The position numbers were made by a program, and so were the translations under genes. The notes beneath the pieces were generated by a model. That model was not told where the DNA came from and made no database searches. It worked only from the letters and a program-made list of their open reading frames with translations. DNA of 64,000 bases from Nitriliruptoraceae bacterium (lineage in GTDB: Bacteria; Actinomycetota; Nitriliruptoria; Nitriliruptorales; Nitriliruptoraceae). The stretch covers positions 1-64,000 of the forward strand of contig PXDB01000079.1 of assembly GCA_003565155.1 (NCBI GenBank), written 5' to 3'. Positions 1,688 through 62,705 of the stretch are shown piece by piece (within the stretch, counting starts at the first letter, position 1; every line of letters starts with the position of its first letter).

Positions 1688-2371
1688 ATGTCACAAGCCA
1701 CCCATGCGGAGCGGCACCCGGTTGCCGCCGTCATCGCGCTGGCGACCGTGCTGTTCATGGCCCTGTCGATGGCGATGCCGACGGCCGCCTTCGCCGACTA
1801 CGGCGAGGACGAGCGCTTCAGCATCATCGACCGCAGCGACGACAGCCGCATCGCCTACGCGCACAGCGACCACTGGCACGGCAGCCTGCCTACCGTCCCG
1901 GTCGATGACCACATCTCGCTCGGCGCGGAGATCCTCGACGAGGACGGCGCGGAGCTCGCCCTGGACGGCTCCCCCTACGAGTTCGGCGTCGCGTTGGCTG
2001 ATGGCGCCGACGACATCGTCGATCTCACGCTGCACGGTGACCACGTCCACATCGCCGGTGAGGCCGAGGGCGAGTCCGAGGTCGTCTTCCAGCTGCTTAG
2101 CGACGGTGATGTCGAGTGGGAGTCCCCAGGTATGGCTGTCACCGTCAGCGGCGACGCTGACCACGGTCATGACGATGACGATGACCACGGCCACAGCCAT
2201 GACGACGACCACGACCACGATGACGCTCCCGAGGGCGGCGTCGACGCCGGCTTCGGCGGTGCGGCTGGCCCGTCCGGCATGAGCCTGACCACCGTCCTGC
2301 TCGCCGGTATGGTCCTGTTCGCGCTGCTCGCGGCGGCTGTCGCCCTGCGTCCTGCCGGGGCGCGTCGCTGA
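1688..2371 (+). CDS. secreted His-rich wall/surface protein, likely zinc-binding
   Basis: The 227-residue protein has a signal peptide (hydrophobic 12-35, cleavage near AFA|DYG). Residues about 44-154 form a domain that recurs in the beta-propeller lipoprotein at 5030; here it carries extra histidines (DHWHG near 61-65, HGDHVH at 116-121). Residues 157-178 are a His/Asp run typical of zinc-binding loops. The end is GGVDAGFGG (183-191), one membrane helix (199-220) and an RR tail, a sorting-signal layout without LPxTG. The ATG at 1688 is chosen because AAGGAG sits at 1675-1680; an upstream in-frame ATG at 1661 lacks a site. The sortase gene follows after 13 bp and a putative Zur site precedes it. 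Inferred role: capture of zinc at the cell surface. Confidence 0.75.
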   Translation: MSQATHAERHPVAAVIALATVLFMALSMAMPTAAFADYGEDERFSIIDRSDDSRIAYAHSDHWHGSLPTVPVDDHISLGAEILDEDGAELALDGSPYEFGVALADGADDIVDLTLHGDHVHIAGEAEGESEVVFQLLSDGDVEWESPGMAVTVSGDADHGHDDDDDHGHSHDDDHDHDDAPEGGVDAGFGGAAGPSGMSLTTVLLAGMVLFALLAAAVALRPAGARR

Positions 2372-2384
2372 CCGACGGCTCCCC

Positions 2385-3086
2385 ATGACCCAGGATCGAC
2401 GCTCGAGGAGCCCCCGGCTGATCGCCGCGGGGCTCCTCGCGCTCGTCTCGCTGGTCTTCGGTGTCGCCGCCATCGCCGTCGAGCAGCGAACACCGCAGGA
2501 CCACAGCGCGGCTACCGCGCCGCAGCCGCCGCGGTTCGCCACCTCGTCCCCGGACGCTCGCGGGCCGGGGAGCGCCGAGGTGCCGGACCTCGATCGCGGT
2601 GACCCCGCGACGGCAGACCACGCGGAGGCTGCCACGCAGTCTGGGACGCCGCGGCCGTCGCAGGTGGTCGTTCCCTCGGTCGGCATCGACGCGGTGCTGG
2701 AACCGGTCGGGGTCGACGACGAGCAGCGCCTCGTCGTCCCGCCGCCGGAATCGGCCGGCTGGTTCGACGGCCGTCCCGCCCCCGGTGAGACGGGCCCCGC
2801 GGTGCTCGTCGGTCACGTCGACTCACAGGAGGGCCCCGCGGTCTTCCACGGTCTCGACCGCGTCTCGCCGGGAGATGAGGTCGTGGTGACCGACGAGGAC
2901 GGCGAGCGGTTCACCTTCGAGGTGGAGCGCACGGAGGTCGTCGCGAAGTCCAACTTCCCGACCGCTGCCGTGTACGACCCGGTCGATCGCGCGGAGCTGC
3001 GGCTCATCACGTGCGGCGGTCCCTTCGACGCCGAGGCAGGTAGCTACCGCGACAACGTCATCGTGTACGCCGTCCTCACGGAGTGA
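2385..3086 (+). CDS. class F sortase
   Basis: Sortases are membrane-anchored cysteine transpeptidases that attach surface proteins to the wall. The 233-residue protein has one N-terminal helix (about 11-32), a Pro/Ala/Asp-rich linker to about 92, and a catalytic domain with His144 (GHVDS), Cys210 (LITCGG) and Arg222 (YRDNVIVYA). This compact domain is typical of actinobacterial class F enzymes. It follows the His-rich surface protein by 13 bp and is probably co-transcribed, so that protein is the obvious substrate. Its substrate motif cannot be read from the enzyme. Confidence 0.9.
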   Translation: MTQDRRSRSPRLIAAGLLALVSLVFGVAAIAVEQRTPQDHSAATAPQPPRFATSSPDARGPGSAEVPDLDRGDPATADHAEAATQSGTPRPSQVVVPSVGIDAVLEPVGVDDEQRLVVPPPESAGWFDGRPAPGETGPAVLVGHVDSQEGPAVFHGLDRVSPGDEVVVTDEDGERFTFEVERTEVVAKSNFPTAAVYDPVDRAELRLITCGGPFDAEAGSYRDNVIVYAVLTE

Positions 3087-3157
3087 TCGGCCCCTGCGTT
3101 GGTCGACGCACACCCTTCAAGCCGCCGACACCGACGCGGCCGGCGTCCTCGGGCGTC

Positions 3158-3982
3158 TCACGCACGTGGCGGGGCCTCGCCGCGGACCTCCTCGAGGTGC
3201 TCGTCGATGCGGGCGTCGTCGATGCCGCCGTAGGCGATCATCAGGTAGCGGGTAGCGAGCGCCTCCCCCGGCGTGCCGGCGCTGACCACTTGGCCAGCGA
3301 GCAGCACCGCGTGTGCCGCGCGGCGGGCGTCGTCCAGGTCGTGGGTCGCCATGATGACCGGCCGCACCCTGCTCTCGGTCTCCAGTTCCTCGCGGATGCG
3401 GCGCGTTGATGGCGCGTCCAGTCCTGTCAGCGGCTCGTCGAGCAAGAGCATCTCGGCCTGCTGTGCCAGTGCCTGGGCGACCAGCGCCCGCTGGCGTTGT
3501 CCGCCGGAGAGCTCGCTGAGCTGGCGTCCCCGCAGGTCCTCGATGTCCATCCGGTGCACCGCAGCGTCGATGGCCGCATGATCCTCGGGGGTGAGGCGTC
3601 CCAGGAGGCGTCGATGCCCGAAGCGGCCCATCCGCACCACCTCATCGACGGTCAGCGGCAACGCCTCGTCGGCGTGGTGCTGCTGGAACACCGCGGCGAT
3701 CTGCGACTGCGGGACCGGTTGCTGACCGAGCACCTCCAGCTGGCCGGACACCGGCGTGAGCAGCCCGCCGAGTGCGGCCAGCAGCGTCGATTTCCCGCAG
3801 CCGTTCGGTCCGACGAGTGCCGTCAGGCCGGGGTTGGGGAACTCCAGACGATCGATCTCCAGCACCACGCGCTGATCGCGGTAGGCGAACCGGAGGTCCC
3901 TGGCGACGACGGCGGGTGAAGGCATCGCTGATCCGAGCGTTGCGGCTGCACGAGCGGAGAGGTCCGGGACCGCGCGTGTCAT
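3158..3982 (-). CDS. aztA: zinc ABC transporter ATPase (AztA/ZnuC-like)
   Basis: Cluster-9 metal ABC ATPase that powers zinc import through the permease encoded divergently at 4092. The 274-residue protein shows Walker A GPNGCGKST, the Q-loop (AAVFQQHH), signature LSGGQRQR, Walker B MLLLDEPLTGLD and the switch His in MATHD. The ATG at 3982 follows an AGGTGA site; an alternative ATG at 3925 begins just before the conserved fold. It faces away from the permease, so one control region at 3983-4091 may serve both directions. Confidence 0.85.
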   Translation of the reverse strand: MTRAVPDLSARAAATLGSAMPSPAVVARDLRFAYRDQRVVLEIDRLEFPNPGLTALVGPNGCGKSTLLAALGGLLTPVSGQLEVLGQQPVPQSQIAAVFQQHHADEALPLTVDEVVRMGRFGHRRLLGRLTPEDHAAIDAAVHRMDIEDLRGRQLSELSGGQRQRALVAQALAQQAEMLLLDEPLTGLDAPSTRRIREELETESRVRPVIMATHDLDDARRAAHAVLLAGQVVSAGTPGEALATRYLMIAYGGIDDARIDEHLEEVRGEAPPRA

Positions 3983-4025
3983 CGGTCACCTGATGGACCC
4001 CCCGGGACGCCAGACGTTACGGAGA

Positions 4026-4052
4026 TGGGACTGGTTCTGCAAAGCAGTCCCA
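4026..4052. promoter_or_regulatory. inverted repeat in the divergent importer promoter region
   Basis: TGGGACTG (4026-4033) and CAGTCCCA (4045-4052) form a perfect 8-bp dyad around 11 bases, between the ATPase start (3982, minus) and the permease start (4092, plus). It could be an operator for the divergent pair or a hairpin in the permease leader. It does not match the GAGARTSABTC core. Confidence 0.4.
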
Positions 4053-4091
4053 CATGGCGATACGTTGCCGGCCATCACGTTCGGAGCGTCC

Positions 4092-5033
4092 ATGGAGTTC
4101 CTCACCGACCCCTTCCAACCCACGTTCATGCAGCGCGGTCTGCTGGCGGGGCTGCTGGCCGGCCTGTCCTGCGGCATCGTCGGGGTGTGGGTCGTGGTGC
4201 GTCGCGTCGCGCTTATCGGTGACGCGCTGGCGCACGGCATCATCCCCGGGGTCGCTATCGCGTACCTGCTGGGTGCGGCGCTCCCGCTCGGGGCCGCGAT
4301 CAGCGGTGCCGCGATGGTGCTCGGGGTCCGTGCCGCGTCGAACCTGCGGCGTGTCGGCGAGGACACCGGGATCGGGCTGCTGTTCGCCGGGATGCTGGCT
4401 CTCGGGGTGCTCATCATCTCCCGCTCCCGGTCCTTCGCGACCGATGTCAGCCACATCCTCTTCGGTGACCCCCTGGGCGTCGGTACGGGGGATCTCATCC
4501 TGGCAGGGGCGACCGCGGCGTTCGTGCTGCTGATCGCGGCGCTCGGTCACCGTGCCTTCGTCGCGCTGTCCTTCGACGCGAGGAAGGCGCAGATGCTCGG
4601 CCTTCGGCCGGGACTGGCCCGCACGGTCGTCCTGCTGCTGGTCGCCGCCACCATCGTCGCTTCCTTCCAGGCCGTGGGTGCACTGCTGGTCTTCGCCCTG
4701 TTGGTCGCCCCGGCGGCGACCGCGGGACTGCTGGTGCGGCGGGCCTCGACGATGATGGTCCTGGCCGTGCTGTTGTCCTGGAGCGCAGTGACGATCGGGA
4801 TGATCGCCAGCTTCCACTACAGCCTGGCGACCGGTGCGGCCATCGCCATGACCGCGGTCCTGCAGTTCTTCCTCGTGGCGACACTCGACCTGCTGCGGCT
4901 GCGCCACCGTGGCCGTACCCTGCAATCGAACGGGAACGGGAACCAGTATCAGGTACGCTCGCAGCCTCAGGTGACCGCCGCAAGCGACACCCTCGCCGAT
5001 GCACCTCGTGTCGATGGAAAGGCCCCGTTGTGA
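4092..5033 (+). CDS. aztB: zinc ABC transporter permease (AztB/ZnuB-like)
   Basis: Integral membrane subunit of a cluster-9 metal importer, 313 residues and mostly hydrophobic helices. It has the family's VVVRRVALIGDALAHGIIPG segment near the N-terminus and the ILFGDPLGV and FALLVAPAATAGLLVRR segments later. The ATG at 4092 is preferred over an in-frame upstream start at 3993, because family N-termini begin close to the first helix. A hydrophilic tail of about 50 residues follows the last helix. Its stop overlaps the next start (GTGA at 5030), so translation with the AztD-like protein is probably coupled. Confidence 0.88.
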   Translation: MEFLTDPFQPTFMQRGLLAGLLAGLSCGIVGVWVVVRRVALIGDALAHGIIPGVAIAYLLGAALPLGAAISGAAMVLGVRAASNLRRVGEDTGIGLLFAGMLALGVLIISRSRSFATDVSHILFGDPLGVGTGDLILAGATAAFVLLIAALGHRAFVALSFDARKAQMLGLRPGLARTVVLLLVAATIVASFQAVGALLVFALLVAPAATAGLLVRRASTMMVLAVLLSWSAVTIGMIASFHYSLATGAAIAMTAVLQFFLVATLDLLRLRHRGRTLQSNGNGNQYQVRSQPQVTAASDTLADAPRVDGKAPL

Positions 5034-6679
5034 ACCGCCGTACACGCAGGATGGCGTGGCTCGCACTCGCCGCGGCGCTCGTGCTCGGTGCCTGCGGCGC
5101 CGATGCCGAGGAACCCGACGACTCGGTGGACACCGAGCCCGACAGCGAAGTCGAGGTGGACGAGGACGCGTCGGGTGAGGAGGACGCCTCAGCGGACGTT
5201 GGTGCCTTCGAACTGCTGGACTGGGACGCGGGCGATGACGTCGTCGCGAGCCTGCACGACGGGGAGTGGGACGGCGCGCTCCCGGAGGTGCCGGAGGACG
5301 ACACCCTGCGTGTCGGCGTCCGTGTGACCGACCCCGACGGGGGGGAGGTCGACCTCGCGGACACCGCGCACGACCTCGCCGTCACCTTCGAGGACGATGC
5401 GGACGAGATCGTGACCGTGGAGGTCGACGGCGACCTCGTCGACCTGTTCGGCGAGGTCGAGGGCATCACGCGGCTGCAGTTCCAGTGGTTGCACGATGGT
5501 GAGGTGCGGTTCGAGACGCCCGCGATCCGTGTCGTCGTCGATCACTTCGCCGGCGATTACGTCGCAGGGCGGGAGGTGCTCGACCCCGAACCGCGGCTGC
5601 TGTTCGCCGACGCCGACGCGCCGCGGGCCGTCGTCTACGACCTGATCGTCGAAGAGGAGCTCGCCAGCTTCGAGTTGCAGGCACCCGACCCGATGGTCGC
5701 CGCGTCGCGTTCAGGCGGGCAGGTCGCCGTGGTGTCGGAGGCAGACGCCGGTGTCGCCCACGTGCTCGATGCGGGCTCGTGGGCGCTCGGTCACGGCGAC
5801 CACGGCCACTACTACATCGACGACCCACGACTGCTCGACACCCTGGAACTCGCCACGCCGACCCGTTCGGCGCACGGCCCTGACCGCATCGCCGTGTCCT
5901 CAGCCGAGGACGGGACCACGATGGTCATCGACGAGTTGCGGTCACTGCAGGCCGGTGAGGTCCGCGCCGACGAGCGAACGGTCGGCGTCGCTGGACACGC
6001 CGCTGGGGCCGTCCCCCTGCCACGCGGCTACGTCGCAGCGCCATGGCCAGCGAACGGCGAAACCGCTGCGGACGAGCTCGCACTGCTCGATGGCGAGGCG
6101 CCCGCGAGCACCCACGAGTGCCCTGAGCTGTCCGCCCTGGCGCCGGTCCCGGACGGTGCGATCGCGGCCTGCGCCGACCGCATCCTCGTTGGCGCGCTGG
6201 ATGAGGACGACTGGCAGGTGCGCGAGATCGCGCTGCCCGACGACGTCGGCGCCGCGACGGAGCTCGCCGGTGACATCCACCAGCCGATGGTCGCCGCCAC
6301 CGACGGGCAGCGCCTGGTGATCGTCGATGCACAGGCGGCGGAGATCGTCGCGGACGTGGAGCTGCCGACGACGGCGGCGAGCGCGCCCCACATCGACGAC
6401 GACGGCTGGTTGCTGCTCGTGACCGATGACGGTGTGCTGCACCAGTTCGACCCCGCGACCGGTGAACGGATCGCCTCGTCCCAGGAGGCCGTCTCCCTGG
6501 AGGGCGGTGATGGCGCGCCGCGTCCGTCGGTCGTCGGTGGCCGCGACCGCGCGTACGTGTCGTCCCCTGGTGACGGCACCATCCTGGAGTTCGCCACCAA
6601 CGACGACCTGCGCCTGGCACGCACCTTCGAGGTCGGCGGTGCGCCTGCGGGGCTCGCCTACTTCGGAGCGATGTGGTGA
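5030..6679 (+). CDS. aztD: AztD-like beta-propeller zinc lipoprotein with an extra N-terminal domain
   Basis: AztD proteins are extracytoplasmic beta-propeller chaperones that hand zinc to the binding protein AztC. This 549-residue protein starts with a lipoprotein signal (LVLGAC, Cys22) and a very acidic linker. Residues about 59-170 are the same domain as in the wall protein at 1688 (shared LPxVPxDD, xDxDGxE, ADxIVxxxxxGDxV and E..GxxxxxFQxLxDGxVxxExP), but without its histidines. The remainder is repetitive propeller sequence with a His loop, HGDHGH at 255-260, where AztD proteins place zinc ligands. GTG at 5030 overlaps the permease stop, and the stop at 6677-6679 overlaps the next ATG. 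The AztD call rests on His loop, propeller character and context. Confidence 0.65.
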   Translation: MNRRTRRMAWLALAAALVLGACGADAEEPDDSVDTEPDSEVEVDEDASGEEDASADVGAFELLDWDAGDDVVASLHDGEWDGALPEVPEDDTLRVGVRVTDPDGGEVDLADTAHDLAVTFEDDADEIVTVEVDGDLVDLFGEVEGITRLQFQWLHDGEVRFETPAIRVVVDHFAGDYVAGREVLDPEPRLLFADADAPRAVVYDLIVEEELASFELQAPDPMVAASRSGGQVAVVSEADAGVAHVLDAGSWALGHGDHGHYYIDDPRLLDTLELATPTRSAHGPDRIAVSSAEDGTTMVIDELRSLQAGEVRADERTVGVAGHAAGAVPLPRGYVAAPWPANGETAADELALLDGEAPASTHECPELSALAPVPDGAIAACADRILVGALDEDDWQVREIALPDDVGAATELAGDIHQPMVAATDGQRLVIVDAQAAEIVADVELPTTAASAPHIDDDGWLLLVTDDGVLHQFDPATGERIASSQEAVSLEGGDGAPRPSVVGGRDRAYVSSPGDGTILEFATNDDLRLARTFEVGGAPAGLAYFGAMW

Positions 6680-7698
6680 TGCAGACCCACCGACGCCCAC
6701 AGCCCTGGCACCTGCTGCTACTCGCGCTGGTGGTCGCTATCGCGGCCGCCTGCGGCACCGAGGAGGCCGACTCGGACACGGCGGCAACGTCCGGGTCGGC
6801 GGATGCCTCCGGAGAGCAGGACGCGGCAGCCGAGGAACCCGCCGAACGCCCCAAGGTCGCGGTGGCCTTCAACATCCTCGCTGACGTGGCGGAGGAGACC
6901 TTCGGCGATCACGTCGAGCTGCTCGACATCATGCCCCGCGGCGTTGACCCCCACAGCTTCCAGATCAGCCCGGCCGAGGCCGGTCCGATCTACGACGCGG
7001 ACCTGCTCATCGCCAACGGCCTCAACCACGAGGAGGGGCTGGCACGGGTGATCCTGAACGCCGAGGACGAGGGCGTGCCGCTGCTCGAGGTCGCCGAGCA
7101 CGTCGACCCGCTGCCCTTCGGGACCGACGTCCTCGAGCTCGAGGACGTGGACGACGGCACCCTCGATCCACACTTCTTCACCGATCCCGTCCGTATGGCC
7201 AAGGTCCCGCACCTGATGGTGGACGCGCTGCTCGACGTGGCCCCGCATCTCGACGAGGAGGAGTTGCGCGCCTCGGCAGATGCCTACGTCGCGGAGCTCG
7301 AGGCGCTACACGTCGAGGTCGAGGAGCTGCTCGCCGATGTGCCGGAGGATCGCCGCTACCTCGTCACCAACCACAGCGTGTTCAACTACTTCGCCGATCG
7401 CTACGACTTCACCGAGGTGGGTGCGATCCTGCCCAGCGGGACGACGTTGGCGAGCCCGAGCCCGGCGGATCTCGAGGAACTCGCCGCCACGATCACTGAG
7501 CTGGGTGTCCCGGCGATCTTCGCCGACATCGGCTCTCCCGATCAGCTGGCGCAGGCGCTCGCAAGGGAGGTCGACGTCGAGGTCGACATCGTCGCCCTCT
7601 ACACCGAGACCCTGGGCGAGGACGGCAGCGGCGCCGAGACCTACCTGAAGATGCAGCGCAGCAACGCCGAGGAGATCGCGCGGGCGCTCGGCGGCTGA
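6679..7698 (+). CDS. aztC: zinc-binding lipoprotein of the ABC importer (AztC/ZnuA-like)
   Basis: Cluster-9 solute-binding lipoprotein (339 residues) delivering Zn to the permease. It has a lipobox ending in AAAC, an acidic linker, then two lobes. The usual metal ligands are visible: His in VDPHSFQ, His in DPHFF, His in TNHSVFNYF and an Asp in IFADIG. There is no long His-rich loop, unlike the binding protein at 59924, which fits a protein served by a separate chaperone. ATG at 6679 overlaps the AztD stop (TGATG); in-frame GTGs at 6673 and 6676 are alternatives. It is the last gene of the plus-strand operon. Confidence 0.88.
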   Translation: MQTHRRPQPWHLLLLALVVAIAAACGTEEADSDTAATSGSADASGEQDAAAEEPAERPKVAVAFNILADVAEETFGDHVELLDIMPRGVDPHSFQISPAEAGPIYDADLLIANGLNHEEGLARVILNAEDEGVPLLEVAEHVDPLPFGTDVLELEDVDDGTLDPHFFTDPVRMAKVPHLMVDALLDVAPHLDEEELRASADAYVAELEALHVEVEELLADVPEDRRYLVTNHSVFNYFADRYDFTEVGAILPSGTTLASPSPADLEELAATITELGVPAIFADIGSPDQLAQALAREVDVEVDIVALYTETLGEDGSGAETYLKMQRSNAEEIARALGG

Positions 7699-7738: not shown

Positions 7739-8197
7739 TCACTGGCAGCTATGGCAGGTCCCGAACAGCTCGAGCCGGTGCCCTTCCGCGCGGAAGCCCG
7801 TGGTGCTCTCCACCTCGGCAGTGGCGCGCGCGAGCGCGGACTCGATCTCCTCGGGCAGGACGACGTCGACGAGGTCCCCACAGCTCGAGCAGCCGAGGTG
7901 GTGATGGTGCCCCGTGAGGTCCTCGTGCAGTTCCACCCGCACGCCGTCGTCGCTGAGCGAGGGGATCTGCCGTACCACGCGACAGGCTTCAAGGATCGCG
8001 AGGTTGCGGTAGACCGAGCTGGTCGAGAGCGTCTCCGCGCGGTGGAGGAGCTCACGGACCGTCAGTGGGTGGCCCGCAGTACAGAGCTCGTCCACGAGAC
8101 GTCGGCGCCCCCGCGTGTAACGACTTCCTGCGCTCCCGAGCCGTTGTTCCACCACCTCGTGCAGCTCGTCCACGCCACCCTCCGTAGCACTGGGCAA
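7739..8197 (-). CDS. zur: Fur-family repressor, Zur-like (copy 1)
   Basis: Zinc-sensing DNA-binding repressor of the Fur family, 152 residues. The N-terminal winged helix contains the recognition segment STSSVYRNLAILE (58-70). The dimerisation part has HHHH (97-100), a structural CxxC pair (C103/C106 and C148/C151), and His91 and His140 as further possible ligands. Four Cys plus a His cluster fits Zur or Fur; the zinc-importer context favours Zur. It converges on the importer operon and has a dyad in its own promoter at 8208-8225, suggesting autoregulation. A paralogue lies at 62271. Confidence 0.85.
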   Translation of the reverse strand: MPSATEGGVDELHEVVEQRLGSAGSRYTRGRRRLVDELCTAGHPLTVRELLHRAETLSTSSVYRNLAILEACRVVRQIPSLSDDGVRVELHEDLTGHHHHLGCSSCGDLVDVVLPEEIESALARATAEVESTTGFRAEGHRLELFGTCHSCQ

Positions 8198-58150: not shown

Positions 58151-58447
58151 TCAGTGCTCGTCGTAGTGGTCGCCGTGCACCGCGTGCCGGTGGCCGTCGT
58201 GCAGGTAGTCGACGTGGTCGTCGTGGGTGATCGTCTCGTGCCCGCACTCGGGGCCGTGGGCGTGGTCGTGGGGTTGGGCGACGGCGTGCACGTCCGTGAT
58301 CGAGCACTCGTCGTAGTGATCGCCGTGCGGCGTGTGGGCATGGCCGTCGTGGAGGTAGTCGACGTGGCCCTGGTGTTCGACGGCTGCGTGACCGCAGTCC
58401 GGGCTGTGGCTGTGGGTGTGTGCGTCGTGAACGGTGCAGGTGGACAT
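58151..58447 (-). CDS. His-rich repeat protein, probable zinc buffer
   Basis: The 98-residue protein has 25 histidines and two copies of a 32-residue unit (17-48 and 67-98) sharing CGH, HVDYLHDGH and HGDHYDE, identical at 21 positions. Cysteines occur in each CGH. No signal peptide is seen, so it is cytoplasmic. ATG at 58447 follows GGAGA; an in-frame upstream start at 58507 adds an unrelated stretch. The neighbouring ArsR regulator and promoter dyad make a zinc-inducible zinc-binding protein the best guess. I recognise the HVDYLHDGH phrase from small actinobacterial metal-locus proteins, but not a defined function. Confidence 0.75.
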   Translation of the reverse strand: MSTCTVHDAHTHSHSPDCGHAAVEHQGHVDYLHDGHAHTPHGDHYDECSITDVHAVAQPHDHAHGPECGHETITHDDHVDYLHDGHRHAVHGDHYDEH

Positions 58448-58507
58448 GGGTTCTCCGGTGCTGAGCGTCGTGGAGGCGGCTTGCCGCTGCTGACGAGAGC
58501 ATAGCAT

Positions 58508-58535
58508 CGATGTATCGCGATGTCACGATATATCG
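58508..58535. promoter_or_regulatory. ArsR-type operator pair before the His-rich gene
   Basis: CGATGTATCG (58508-58517) and CGATATATCG (58526-58535) are two near-identical palindromes 18 bp apart in an AT-rich patch, upstream of the His-rich gene start (58447) and downstream of the arsR stop. This resembles SmtB/CzrA operators. Confidence 0.6.
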
Positions 58536-58572
58536 GTGATGGAGTGCGGGTGAGGTCCCGTGCCGTCCATGG

Positions 58573-58869
58573 TCAGTGCGTCTCGCCGGCGTGGATGACC
58601 GCATCCTCGACGATGTGCGCCACGTGTTCATCGACGAGGTGGTAGGTGACCGAGCGTCCCTCCCTGACCGCGGTGACCAGCCGCACGCCACGCAGGATGG
58701 CCAGGTGCTCCGAGACGCGGGGCTGGGCGACGCCCAGGGCGTCCACCAGTTCGTGGACCGCGCGGGGGCCGCTGGCGAGTTGACGGACGATGGCCACGCG
58801 GATGGGGTTGGAGAGCGCCTTGAAGGTGTCGGTGACCCGCTCCATGTCCTGGATCGCCGTCGCCTCCAT
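58573..58869 (-). CDS. ArsR/SmtB-family zinc sensor (CzrA-like)
   Basis: The 98-residue repressor has a winged helix with VAQPRVSEHLAILRGVRLV as recognition helix. Its last helix carries D80-x-H82, then after ten residues H93-x-x-E96, the exact alpha-5 zinc motif (DxHx10Hxx[E/H]) of SmtB and CzrA. There is no alpha-3 Cys motif, so it fits a zinc/cobalt sensor that releases DNA when zinc is high. It precedes the His-rich gene on the same strand. Confidence 0.88.
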   Translation of the reverse strand: MEATAIQDMERVTDTFKALSNPIRVAIVRQLASGPRAVHELVDALGVAQPRVSEHLAILRGVRLVTAVREGRSVTYHLVDEHVAHIVEDAVIHAGETH

Positions 58870-58970
58870 GGGGACCTCCCCTCCGGTGACAGGGTAGCCG
58901 GGCGGGGTGGATGGCCGCGGGTCCGACCATCGTCGCCGGTGGTGCCGCCGTCGGCGTGGTCAGCGCCGTC

Positions 58971-59822
58971 CTAGCCGAGCTGATCCTCGTGACGGTGGTC
59001 GTGGGTGTGGGGGTCGTCGAGCACGAGCGTCCCGTCCTCCAGCACGTGCACGTGGCCACCGTACGCACGTGACAGCAACTCCGGGGTCAGCACCATCGAT
59101 GGGGCGCCCGCGGCGATGATGTCGGTGGCGATCAGCACGGCGACGTCGGTGAGCCGCGCCGTTCCAACGTCATGGGTGGTCAGGATCACGATCCGTCCGC
59201 GGTCACGCTCCTCGCGGATGACTTCCGTGATGACCTCCTGGGAGATCATGTCCAGCCCGGTGATCGGCTCGTCGAGCAGGAGGACGTCCGCCTGCTGCGC
59301 GAGGCCCTGCGCGACGTAGGTGCGTTGGCGTTGGCCCCCGGAGAGCTCGTGCAGTTGCCGATGGCGCAGATCATCGATGCGCATCCGGTGGATCGCGTCC
59401 TCGACCGCCGTGCGATCCTCAGCCGTCAGCCGACCGACCATCCCGCGTCGTCCGTAGGCGCCCATCCGCACGGTCTCGAGCACCGTCAGCGGCACCGCCT
59501 GGTTCGCGATGGTCGTCTGCAGCACGTGGGCGACCCTGTTGCGGCGTGCGGTCCCCGCCGTGCCGCTCACCGACACCTGGCCGCGTGACGGTCCGACGAG
59601 CCCGGAGATCGTCGACAGGAGGGTGCTCTTCCCGGAGCCGTTCGGCCCGATGATGGCCACAGCGGTGCCAGGAGCCAGGTGCATTGACGCGTCGCGAACC
59701 GCCACGATGTCCCCGAAGGTGACCCACAGGCGGTCGACGTTGACGGTCGGCCCCCCAGCGGGCTCATGTGCGGACCCCGCTCCCGGGGAGCTTCCGGTTG
59801 GCGATGCGGGAACGGTTCCCAT
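58971..59822 (-). CDS. znuC: zinc ABC transporter ATPase (second importer)
   Basis: The 283-residue ATPase has Walker A GPNGSGKST, LSGGQRQR, Walker B LLLDEPITGLD and TTHD. It ends in a His-rich tail (DDPHTHDHRHED). It is divergent from the binding-protein gene at 59924. It resembles the ATPase at 3158 in motif order, so the two importers are paralogues. Confidence 0.85.
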   Translation of the reverse strand: MGTVPASPTGSSPGAGSAHEPAGGPTVNVDRLWVTFGDIVAVRDASMHLAPGTAVAIIGPNGSGKSTLLSTISGLVGPSRGQVSVSGTAGTARRNRVAHVLQTTIANQAVPLTVLETVRMGAYGRRGMVGRLTAEDRTAVEDAIHRMRIDDLRHRQLHELSGGQRQRTYVAQGLAQQADVLLLDEPITGLDMISQEVITEVIREERDRGRIVILTTHDVGTARLTDVAVLIATDIIAAGAPSMVLTPELLSRAYGGHVHVLEDGTLVLDDPHTHDHRHEDQLG

Positions 59823-59849
59823 TACGCTCCTCGTGCCGTCCCGGCGAAC

Positions 59850-59861
59850 CGTAGCGCTACG
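59850..59861. promoter_or_regulatory. 12-bp palindrome in the second importer's divergent promoter
   Basis: CGTAGCGCTACG is a perfect 12-bp palindrome in the 101-bp gap between the ATPase (59822, minus) and binding-protein (59924, plus) starts. An imperfect GGGAACGGTTCCC lies at 59808-59820, overlapping the ATPase start. Neither matches the GAGARTSABTC core. Confidence 0.4.
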
Positions 59862-59923
59862 AGCGGGCCTCGTCGTCGCGAACCGCCTCCAGCCGGATCG
59901 TCCCCTCGAAACGAGATGCCCCG

Positions 59924-61135
59924 ATGTCGCTCCCGCACCTCGCCCGCCCGTCTGGCGGCCTGCCGCTGCTCGCGGTGCTCGGCCTCCTCCTCGCCGCGTG
60001 CGGCGCCGGGGTCGAGCCGTCGGCGACCGAGGCGGTGGCCGATGACGGGACCGACGCTGCCGTCGACGACAGCTCCGCGGATGCGTCGGACGGAGCGGCC
60101 GCCGAGGAGGTCGACCGCCTCTCGATCGTCGCCACGACCTCGCTCATCGGGGACATGGTCGCCACGCTCGCGCAGGAGGATGCCGAGGTGACCGTGCTCA
60201 TGCCGCCGGGTGTCGACCCGCACGGCTACGAGCCATCGGCGAGCGACGGGCGGCTGCTGCGTGAGGCGGATCTGATCGTGGCGAACGGCTTGCAGCTCGA
60301 GGAGAACCTGGTGTCGGTCCTCGAGGCGGTCGAGGAGGAAGGTGGCAGCATCCTCGCCCTGGCCGAGCAGCTCGACCCCATCGACTTCGCGTGGGACGGC
60401 CCGGGGCACAGCCACGGTGACGACGACGCCGGTCACCCGCAGGATGATGACGACCACGGTCACTCACACGACGATGACGCCGGTCACTCCCACGATGATG
60501 ACGACCACGGTCACTCCCATGATGACGACGACCACGGTCACTCCGACGAAGAGGAGGACCACGGTCACTCCCACGATGGCGGGGACCCGCACTTCTGGTT
60601 CGACCCGCTACGTGCCGCCGAGGGTGTGCAGCTGATCGCCGAGGCCATCGCCGAACTGGACGAGCGGCTCGAGGCTGAGGAGTGGTCGGCGCGCGGTGCG
60701 GCCGCGGCCGAGGAGCTCGAGGAGCTCCACGACGAGATGATGGCGATGTTCGACACCATCCCGTCCGGGAACCGCACGCTGGTCACCAACCACGACGCGC
60801 TCGGCTACCTGGCGTACCGCTACGACCTCGAGGTGCTGGGCACGGTCGTGCCCGGCGCCTCGACGCAGTCCGAGGTCGACGCGCGTGGATTCGCGGAGCT
60901 GGTGGAGACGGTCGAACGCGCTGGCGTCGAGGTGGTCTTCGCCGAGAACACCGACTCCACCGTGCTCGCCGAGCAACTCGCCAGCGAGGTGGTCGGGCGC
61001 GGCGATCTCGAGGTCGAGGTCGTGCGGATCTACACCGACGCCCTCGGTGAGGAGGGCAGCGGTGCCGAGACCTACACCGGCCTGCTGCGCACCACCTCCA
61101 GGCTGATCACGGAGGCGCTCGGCGGCACCGTCTGA
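59924..61135 (+). CDS. znuA: zinc-binding lipoprotein with a long His/Asp loop
   Basis: The 403-residue ZnuA-type lipoprotein has lipobox LLAAC and an acidic linker, then VTVLMPPGVDPHGYEPS (His ligand), DPHFWFDPL (His), TNHDALGYLAYRYD (His) and FAENTDST (Glu). About 60 residues near 161-221 are a charged loop of repeated DDDHGHS units between the first two ligands, which catches zinc. The importer at 6679 lacks this loop. Confidence 0.92.
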   Translation: MSLPHLARPSGGLPLLAVLGLLLAACGAGVEPSATEAVADDGTDAAVDDSSADASDGAAAEEVDRLSIVATTSLIGDMVATLAQEDAEVTVLMPPGVDPHGYEPSASDGRLLREADLIVANGLQLEENLVSVLEAVEEEGGSILALAEQLDPIDFAWDGPGHSHGDDDAGHPQDDDDHGHSHDDDAGHSHDDDDHGHSHDDDDHGHSDEEEDHGHSHDGGDPHFWFDPLRAAEGVQLIAEAIAELDERLEAEEWSARGAAAAEELEELHDEMMAMFDTIPSGNRTLVTNHDALGYLAYRYDLEVLGTVVPGASTQSEVDARGFAELVETVERAGVEVVFAENTDSTVLAEQLASEVVGRGDLEVEVVRIYTDALGEEGSGAETYTGLLRTTSRLITEALGGTV

Positions 61136-61374
61136 CCTGCGCGTGCAGGATCGGCGTCGCCGGGAGCCACCGGTACCTGGGGGTCCCCGAACGCTGGAGG
61201 TCGCTCCCGCCCGCCCGGGGGTCTACGGTTCGCCGCGCCAGGGCGCCGTCCACCGGGGGCCGGCCGACCCAGCCGGCCGACGACCGGTGGGCACACCGCC
61301 ACCGGTCGGTGTGCGCTCCTGATCACGGCACGGTAGGTCCGAGCCCTGCACGGAGGTTCCGGAGACGATGACCC

Positions 61375-62241
61375 GTGGTTGATCTGCTCCTCGACCCCTT
61401 CGTGTTCGAGTTCATGCGCAACGGCCTGTACGCGGGACTGCTGACGGTGGTCGCCGCCTCGCTGGTCGGGACGTGGGTCGTGCTGCGGGGCCTGTCCTTC
61501 ATGGGCGACGCGATGGCGCACGGGGTGCTCCCCGGGATCGCCGTGGCCTTCCTGCTGGGGGGCAACCTGCTCGTCGGTGCGGCGATCAGTGCCGCGGTCA
61601 TGATCGCCGGCGTCAGCCTCGCCAGTGCCAGGAGCCGTCTGGGTGACGACGTCGCGATCGGGCTGCTGTTCGTCGGGATGCTCGCCCTCGGTGTCGCCAT
61701 CATCTCCGCACGTGGTGCCTACGCCGGCGACCTGACGACGATCCTGTTCGGTGACCCCATCGGCGTGACCGCCGGCCATCTGCGCACCCTGCTGCTCGCC
61801 GCCACCGTGACCATCGTGCTCACCGTCGCGCTGTACCGGCCGTTCCTGGTCCTCTCCTTCAGCCGGGCGAAAGCCCTGGTCCTCGGGATGCATCCGCGTC
61901 TCGCGCACCTGGCGATGCTCGGGCTGATCGCCATGGTCATCGTGACGTCCTTCAGGACGGTGGGCACGCTGCTGGTGTTCGCCTTCCTGATCGCCCCGCC
62001 GGCGACCGCCTCCCTGATCGCGCGACGCGTGCCGGTGATGATGCTGGTGTCCATCCTCGTCGGCGCCATCAGCGTGCTGGCAGGGCTGCTGATCAGCTTC
62101 TACTTCGGCACAGCGACCGCGGCCACGATCGCGGGCCTGACCGTCCTGCTGTACTTCGTGGTGCTGACGGTCCGCGAGACGATCGACGCCCTCCGCCGGT
62201 GGCGGTCACGGTCTCGCCGACACGCCACAGCGCCCGCGTGA
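61375..62241 (+). CDS. znuB: zinc ABC transporter permease (second importer)
   Basis: The 288-residue permease has WVVLRGLSFMGDAMAHGVLPG near the start, ILFGDPIGV and VFAFLIAPPATASLIARRVP. It follows the binding protein by 239 bp. A GTG at 61375 after CGGAG is taken. It forms an importer with the genes at 58971 and 59924. Confidence 0.88.
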   Translation: MVDLLLDPFVFEFMRNGLYAGLLTVVAASLVGTWVVLRGLSFMGDAMAHGVLPGIAVAFLLGGNLLVGAAISAAVMIAGVSLASARSRLGDDVAIGLLFVGMLALGVAIISARGAYAGDLTTILFGDPIGVTAGHLRTLLLAATVTIVLTVALYRPFLVLSFSRAKALVLGMHPRLAHLAMLGLIAMVIVTSFRTVGTLLVFAFLIAPPATASLIARRVPVMMLVSILVGAISVLAGLLISFYFGTATAATIAGLTVLLYFVVLTVRETIDALRRWRSRSRRHATAPA

Positions 62242-62270
62242 GGCCGCGCCCGTAGGTGCAGCTGCGAGGT

Positions 62271-62705
62271 TCAGCTGCACCGTCCGCAGGTGCCGACCAG
62301 TTCGAGACGGTGCGAGTCGATCACGTAACCACGCTGGTCCCGCGCTTCGCCGGCTGCCTCGCCCAGCGCCCGTTCGATGGCGGGTGGCAGCACCACATCG
62401 TCGATCCGGCCACAGACGGAGCACACCACGTGGTGGTGGTGCTCCGAGAGCTCCTCGGTCAGCTCGTAACGCGCGACATCGTCGGTCGAGGCGAGGCGAT
62501 GGACCGCGCCGCACTGCTCGAGGATGGCGAGGTTGCGGTAGAGCGAGCTCTGCGACTGTGCCGCGCCCCGATCCAGTAGCTCCGGGATCGTGACCGGCCG
62601 GTCCGTCGCTATCAGCAGGTCCACGAGCTGCTTCCGACCCCGGGTGTAGCGCTGCCGGGACCGCCGGAGTTGCTCGTCCACGATGGTATGCACGTCTGTA
62701 CTCAT
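62271..62705 (-). CDS. zur: Fur-family repressor, Zur-like (copy 2)
   Basis: The 144-residue protein has a winged helix with SQSSLYRNLAILEQCG, HHHH (89-92), C95/C98 and C140/C143 as structural zinc pairs, and His132. It is close in layout to the copy at 7739. Two copies each beside an importer suggest divided roles or one being specialised. It converges on znuB. A GTTC/GAAC dyad lies 18-30 bp upstream of its start. Confidence 0.85.
   Translation of the reverse strand: MSTDVHTIVDEQLRRSRQRYTRGRKQLVDLLIATDRPVTIPELLDRGAAQSQSSLYRNLAILEQCGAVHRLASTDDVARYELTEELSEHHHHVVCSVCGRIDDVVLPPAIERALGEAAGEARDQRGYVIDSHRLELVGTCGRCS

What the first reader, a model, noticed from the sequence alone, without database searches (positions are those of the whole stretch)
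1688..6679. A domain shared by a sortase-linked His-rich wall protein and an AztD-like zinc chaperone
Residues about 44-154 of the wall protein and 59-170 of the propeller lipoprotein align by eye over about 110 residues, including LPxVPxDD, DxDGxE, ADxIV, GDxV and DGxVxxExP. The wall copy has histidines (DHWHG, HGDHVH) that the lipoprotein copy lacks. With the class F sortase, the ABC importer and the repressor alongside, this suggests a relay: wall protein captures zinc, hands it to the lipoprotein through like-to-like domains, then to AztC and the permease. Known actinobacterial anchored-repeat ABC systems (TIGR03769 family) share the idea, but this domain does not show their motifs.
Basis: partly seen in the sequence, partly recalled or inferred. 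Interest (0 to 1): 0.85.

Follow-up and report, generated by a model that had tools for sequence, protein, structure and literature searches.

The report
Metal-uptake domain of soda-lake microbes
A wall protein and a zinc-chaperone-like protein in this bacterium share a previously unmodelled histidine-bearing domain that turns out to be built into zinc and cobalt uptake proteins of many unrelated archaea and bacteria from soda lakes, so it is probably a widely shared part for catching scarce metals.

Summary
Wall-protein residues 44-153 and AztD-like residues 60-170 are homologous (38% identity, E 2e-20). No Pfam or NCBIfam model covers them, and they are unrelated to the TIGR03769 repeat.

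The surprise lies outside the window. A profile of the domain finds 44 named loci in at least seven phyla of archaea and bacteria, 40 of them from documented soda-lake sources. Copies carry HxxHW[HD]G...HGDHxH and sit in (a) tandem-copy secreted or lipoproteins, (b) ZnuA-type binding proteins, inserted just before the DPHxW ligand, i.e. in the loop shown in AztC to be essential for receiving zinc, (c) AztD-type propellers, (d) one NicO-type transporter, and (e) lipoproteins of cobalt ECF operons in Clostridia. One origin of the binding-protein copies is rejected (p 3e-10). AlphaFold gives a confident Ig-like sandwich (pLDDT 95) with no close solved relative.

Best reading: an extracytoplasmic metal-capture and hand-off module. 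The like-to-like relay is plausible in general but weak in this window: its AztD copy has lost five of six histidines and its propeller all three central-pore ligands. Metal binding and transfer are inferred, not shown. New domain in a known kind of system.

The parts
1688..2371 (+). wall-anchored His-rich protein (227 aa)
1817..2146 (+). Ig-like His domain, wall copy (residues 44-153), six of six conserved histidines
2156..2233 (+). His/Asp-rich linker (DHGHDDDDDHGHSHDDDHDHDDAPE)
   Evidence: read directly
2228..2368 (+). GVDTG-type sorting signal (GGVDAGFGG, hydrophobic stretch, RR)
   Evidence: NF058571 E 1.5e-5, 25.2 bits, cut-off 29; same in G026 homologue
2385..3086 (+). class F sortase
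   Evidence: NF033748 177.5 bits, cut-off 166
3158..3982 (-). AztA-type ABC ATPase
   Evidence: NF040873 E 3e-59, below cut-off
3993..5033 (+). AztB permease (family start suggests true start near 4092)
   Evidence: NF040871 282 bits, cut-off 280
5030..6679 (+). AztD-like lipoprotein with N-terminal domain copy
5207..5539 (+). Ig-like domain, AztD copy (residues 60-170); one of six conserved histidines left
5588..6664 (+). AztD beta-propeller; site-1 ligands lost, site-2 HGDHGH kept at 5792-5809
6673..7698 (+). AztC-type ZnuA-family binding protein without the domain; loop before DPHFF has no histidine
7739..8197 (-). Fur-family regulator
   Evidence: PF01475 E 5e-14

Best explanation
The shared region is a roughly 112-residue Ig-like beta-sandwich carrying a conserved histidine cluster (HxxHW[HD]G and HGDHxH). 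It works outside the cytoplasmic membrane as a metal-capturing module of transition-metal importers. In tandem on secreted, lipid-anchored or wall-anchored proteins it collects zinc (or cobalt/nickel); the copy built into the acceptor loop of the ABC binding protein, just before the DPHxW ligand, takes metal up locally and delivers it to the binding cleft, then to the permease. It is used mainly by soda-lake organisms, where carbonate, sulfide and pH near 10 should leave little free zinc. Shown: homology, fold prediction, motif conservation, architectures, loop position, repeated recruitment into binding proteins, soda-lake origin of the named hits. Inferred: that the histidines bind metal, that metal moves from surface copy to binding-protein copy, and that scarcity is the selective reason. 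In this window the wall copy is intact and probably a scavenger; the AztD copy is degenerate and may only dock or be a remnant.
For: Homology. Tandem-copy or single-copy surface protein directly upstream of a ZnuA-type binding protein with an insert in 11 loci. Of 53 domain proteins scanned 23 match ZnuA. The insert precedes DPHxW in 21 of 23 binding proteins; the other two (L036, L056) are circularly permuted at this point. In Paracoccus AztC the loop at residues 117-133, before ligand His138, and each of its three histidines are essential for receiving zinc from AztD (PMC7463823). In 67 haloarchaeal copies found by profile rather than motif: first two His 96% each, W 100%, third H 75% (else D), later His 72% and 76%. 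AF2 pLDDT 95.1. In all 33 of 44 loci sit in or beside metal-uptake genes: 23 ZnuA fusions, 3 AztD, 6 beside a CbiO-type ATPase in Clostridia with CbiM verified in two, 1 NicO-type. 40 of 44 named hits are documented soda-lake sources (PMC6146748, PMC6704655, PMC4766312, PMC6295475, PMC12343721, PMC10963439), while the two main MAG sets (871 and 1032 MAGs) are at most about 2% of the 84,980 genomes.
Against: No metal-binding measurement, and no coordinates were available to check that the histidines form one site. Binding-protein copies in Halobacteria often lose the second motif (mean 3.8 of 6 His against 5.0 in the others). Five loci have the protein with no transporter seen nearby (L053, L060, L062, L063, L071). 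The window's AztD copy has lost its histidines. The soda-lake statement rests on one exact-motif scan; a profile search finds the domain in 52 of 294 unnamed Halobacteria genomes whose habitats could not be checked.
Confidence: 0.68

Rival explanations
1. Like-to-like relay exactly: copies on the wall protein and on the next uptake protein pair with each other and share a bridging zinc that is handed over.
For: Copies occur on both partners of the same operon in many lineages. The binding-protein copy sits in the loop known to receive zinc. Zinc-bridged His sites as transfer intermediates have been proposed for AztD/AztC (PMC6689063).
Against: In this window only one of the two copies keeps the histidines. 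No interface evidence exists. The same architecture would arise if the copies acted independently.
Confidence: 0.3
2. Metal sponge: the copies and the His-rich linkers simply raise local metal concentration near the importer; there is no specific hand-off.
For: Many copies are flanked by runs of H and D. Solo lipoproteins exist without a nearby importer. The window's second zinc operon has a plain His-rich loop at the same position in its binding protein.
Against: A folded domain with a fixed motif kept from archaea to Mollicutes is more than a sponge needs. Repeated insertion at one loop suggests a defined role there.
Confidence: 0.25
3. Docking module: an Ig-like domain that holds surface protein and binding protein together; the histidines are structural or pH sensing.
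For: Ig-like folds usually mediate binding. Copies that lost the histidines are retained (window AztD, L074).
Against: Nearly all copies keep the histidine motif. Single-copy lipoproteins in cobalt ECF operons have no evident partner with a copy.
Confidence: 0.12
4. An ordinary surface Ig-like repeat with no metal role, next to metal genes by chance.
For: Nearest solved folds are generic Ig-like, filamin and Rib domains.
Against: 33 of 44 loci are in or beside metal-uptake genes, 23 as fusions to ZnuA-type proteins. Conserved His clusters are not expected of a generic repeat.
Confidence: 0.04

Closest known systems
Actinobacterial anchored-repeat ABC system (TIGR03769-TIGR03773; Zn/Zur-regulated in Corynebacterium diphtheriae, PMC6711530)
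   Same: A domain shared by a sortase-anchored protein and uptake proteins of one metal ABC operon; in relatives of the window one copy inserted in the ZnuA-type binding protein.
   Different: The domain is unrelated in sequence (hhalign probability 1.2%); found mostly in archaea, Clostridia and Mollicutes; in the window the second copy is on AztD, not on the binding protein.
AztABCD zinc importer (Paracoccus, Citrobacter)
   Same: AztB over cut-off, AztA/AztC best hits, AztD propeller by sequence and fold.
   Different: AztD carries an extra N-terminal Ig-like domain and has lost the three central-pore zinc ligands; the wall protein and sortase are added.
AdcA (ZinT domain fused to ZnuA-like domain) and PhtD of streptococci
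   Same: Idea of an accessory zinc-binding domain or surface protein that feeds a ZnuA-type binding protein (PMC6689063, PMC7463823).
   Different: Different fold and motif; here the domain is inserted in the acceptor loop rather than appended.
Cobalt/nickel ECF transporters (CbiMQO, NikL)
   Same: Six Clostridia loci have the domain lipoprotein beside a CbiO-type ATPase, mostly between it and CbiM.
   Different: The domain lipoprotein is not a recognised subunit in the Pfam or NCBIfam models searched.

Membership tests
Anchored-repeat ABC system (TIGR03769-73) | TIGR03769 repeat present | tested here: not met
   No NCBIfam hit at E<=1; own genome no match; hhalign against TIGR03769-type repeats probability 1.2%
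Anchored-repeat ABC system (TIGR03769-73) | Same repeat on anchored protein and another uptake protein of the operon | tested here: met
Anchored-repeat ABC system (TIGR03769-73) | Binding protein carries one repeat copy | tested here: not met
   Window AztC lacks it; met in relatives such as L064 and L075
Anchored-repeat ABC system (TIGR03769-73) | ATPase, permease and binding protein pass TIGR03771/70/72 cut-offs | tested here: not met
   151/269, 178/297, 109/350 bits
AztABCD | AztA, AztB, AztC equivalog models | tested here: inconclusive
   AztB 282/280 over; AztA 200/220 and AztC 290/350 below cut-off though best hits
AztABCD | AztD propeller | tested here: met
   Sequence E 4e-14; Foldseek TM 0.85 to 6cmk
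AztABCD | AztD site-1 ligands His124, His167, His218 | tested here: not met
   R279, A324, S368 in the window; the aligned stretches of L050 keep PIH, PHHG and CPGLHG
AztABCD | AztD site-2 ligands | tested here: inconclusive
   H255 and H258 kept, Asp104 replaced by H260
GVDTG sortase substrates | NF058571 sorting domain | tested here: inconclusive
   E 1.5e-5, 25.2 bits, cut-off 29; class F sortase gene directly downstream
Known metal-binding domain families (ZinT, ZrgA, Pht, others in Pfam/NCBIfam) | Profile match to the domain | tested here: not met
   weak ZrgA and Strep_his_triad hits fall on His-rich stretches or in single members
Metal-binding domain (functional class) | Measured binding of Zn/Co/Ni | not testable with these tools
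   Needs purified protein

The most novel reading that the evidence does not exclude
A single mobile Ig-like histidine module is a shared metal-acquisition device of the soda-lake biota, exchanged between archaea and bacteria and recruited repeatedly into the zinc-receiving loop of ABC binding proteins, where surface copy and binding-protein copy pass zinc directly between like domains.
Probability: 0.33. Interest if true: 0.86.

Novelty: new variant of a known kind. Interest (0 to 1): 0.72.

Why it matters
How microbes obtain zinc, cobalt and nickel at pH 10 in carbonate brines is little studied; this domain gives a concrete, testable part. It also looks like an independent equivalent of the anchored-repeat uptake systems of corynebacteria: an unrelated domain placed on surface protein and binding protein in the same way, which points to a general design for moving metal from wall to membrane. 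Annotation libraries lack the domain, so many surface proteins next to metal importers now called hypothetical could be named.

Tried and rejected
TIGR03769 search in Actinomycetota at strict thresholds gave nothing and had to be repeated at a loose one to obtain repeats for comparison; these proved unrelated. tblastn of a tandem protein against plasmids and phages: none. BLAST with window proteins missed most transporter neighbours and was replaced by iterated profiles; the SBP/AztD labels on domain ORFs are contaminated by the domain itself, so (domain masked) is used. Palindromes that might be Zur sites upstream of wall gene, aztA/aztB or fur: nothing convincing. Rfam: nothing. The quick tree put the two window copies apart, but an AU test does not reject one clade for them (p 0.49) or for all Nitriliruptoria copies (p 0.79), so separate acquisition is not claimed. 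One clade for all archaeal copies is also not rejected (p 0.24), so the number of archaea-bacteria transfers is open. L074, titled Desulfonatronospira, is 75-83% identical to the window's Azt proteins and is probably a misbinned Nitriliruptoria contig, so Thermodesulfobacteriota is not counted.

Full report
OBSERVATION. The two regions are homologous beyond doubt: 111 columns, 38% identity, E 2e-20; genome-wide the second copy scores E 3e-18. The gene list is right: wall protein 1688-2371, class F sortase, AztA (reverse), AztB, AztD-like lipoprotein 5030-6679, AztC-type binding protein, Fur-family regulator. The propeller is AztD by sequence (E 4e-14) and by fold (TM 0.85 to 6cmk). The wall protein ends in a GVDTG-type sorting signal, below cut-off. 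Neither Pfam nor NCBIfam covers the shared region in the window proteins or in 53 relatives.

RELATIVES. Two Nitriliruptoria genomes of the same class show what the window alone cannot. G039 has aztA, aztB, a lipoprotein with two tandem copies, an AztD with one copy, and aztC, in the window's order. In other loci of G039 and G041 the domain is inserted inside a ZnuA-type binding protein. A profile from eight copies (A2) scanned over 84,980 named genomes gave 44 loci in Halobacteria and other euryarchaea, Thermoplasmata, Clostridia, Mollicutes/Izimaplasma, Nitriliruptoria, Myxococcota and Deinococcota. They hold about 90 copies.

ARCHITECTURES. (a) Secreted or lipoproteins with one to three copies. 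(b) ZnuA-type binding proteins with one to three copies: 23 of 53 proteins. In 11 loci (a) lies directly upstream of (b), followed by ATPase and permease. (c) AztD-type propellers: the window, L050, L067 (Trueperaceae), L074. (d) A NicO-type nickel transporter (L073). (e) In six Clostridia loci a domain lipoprotein lies beside a CbiO-type ATPase; a CbiM-like gene follows it in five of these (verified by HMM in two), with CbiQ and a NikL-like protein in L045. So 33 of 44 loci are in or beside metal-uptake genes; five of the rest are cut by contig ends. The domain is therefore not zinc-only.

INSERTION POINT. In 21 of 23 binding proteins the domain lies in the acidic/His-rich loop just before DPHxW (L055 and L068 judged by eye because the motif pattern was too strict, and in L055 the motif itself was not seen in the stretch printed). 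In Paracoccus AztC this position is the D-loop (117-133, before ligand His138), essential with each of its three histidines for receiving zinc from AztD (PMC7463823). The equivalence is by alignment. The remaining two, L036 and L056, are circularly permuted: the C-lobe from DPHxW comes first and the domains follow the N-lobe, so they stay attached to the same strand. A single origin of the binding-protein copies is rejected (AU p 3e-10), so recruitment into this loop, or exchange with free copies, happened more than once.

MOTIF. In copies selected by the scan the first motif is partly selected for, so the unbiased test is the set of 67 haloarchaeal copies found by profile: H 96%, H 96%, W 100%, H 75% (otherwise D), then H 72%, G 97%, D 94%, H 76%, last H 45%. 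Free copies keep more histidines (5.6 of 6) than binding-protein copies (5.2), AztD copies fewest (3.25 over four). The window wall copy has six of six; the window AztD copy has H,E,D,D,L,D.

FOLD. AlphaFold2 on 90 sequences: pLDDT 95.1, pTM 0.88, eleven strands. Foldseek finds only distant Ig-like, filamin and Rib domains (TM at most 0.57).

ECOLOGY. Of 44 named loci 40 come from documented soda-lake sources: 20 Kulunda sediment MAGs (PMC6146748: pH 10, 871 MAGs), 12 Cock Soda Lake MAGs (PMC6704655: 1032 MAGs), 3 soda brine MAGs (PMC4766312), one soda-lake enrichment (PMC6295475), four loci of soda-lake isolates (PMC12343721, PMC10963439); one more is Halorubrum alkaliphilum; three are unverified. 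The two large sets are at most about 2% of the collection. By profile the domain is rare elsewhere: 4 of 297 Actinomycetota (all Nitriliruptoria), 1 of 245 in the class of Tindallia, 8 of 200 Thermoplasmata, 4 of 111 Deinococcota, but 52 of 294 Halobacteria, whose habitats are unknown here. The soda-lake link is therefore strong but not complete.

COMPARISON. The closest known arrangement is the anchored-repeat ABC system, zinc- and Zur-regulated in C. diphtheriae (PMC6711530). Its repeats, read from G262 and G011, are unrelated to this domain (hhalign 1.2%). It works like that system but is not a member.

THE WINDOW ITSELF. Only AztD site 2 (HGDHGH) remains. The wall protein, with an intact domain and a His/Asp linker, may feed AztC directly, or the second importer at 58971-62241 whose binding protein has a long His-rich loop at the same position.

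VERDICT. A real, previously unmodelled, cross-domain metal-uptake module; metal capture likely, hand-off plausible, like-to-like transfer untested.

Noticed in passing
window 58151-62705: A second zinc-type ABC operon: His-rich 98-aa ORF, ArsR-type regulator, ATPase, ZnuA-type binding protein with a long His/Asp-rich loop directly before DPHFW, AztB-like permease, and a second Fur-family gene.
   Followed up: partly
L036:6618-8333 and L056:7020-8693: Circularly permuted ZnuA-type binding proteins in two Thermoplasmata MAGs: the C-lobe (from DPHxW) precedes the N-lobe and the new domains end the protein.
   Followed up: partly
L037, L039, L040, L042, L045, L058: Clostridia cobalt ECF operons carry a domain lipoprotein beside CbiO, mostly between CbiO and CbiM, in several cases near hemA/hemL-like genes; the metal there is probably cobalt or nickel.
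   Followed up: partly
L039:2255-3163 and L058:6888-7835: The lipoprotein has an extra C-terminal domain (PYEWSG...DRDHSDHMAYH) without a Pfam match.
   Followed up: no
L073:2448-3587: Domain copy at the C-terminus of a NicO-type metal transporter in a euryarchaeal MAG.
   Followed up: no
L074 (PUMA01000021.1): Contig titled Desulfonatronospira encodes Azt proteins 75-83% identical to the window's; probably a misbinned Nitriliruptoria contig.
   Followed up: partly
L109 (G011:C1, about 1900696): A complete genome of the same family has a TIGR03769-type repeat instead of this domain.
   Followed up: no
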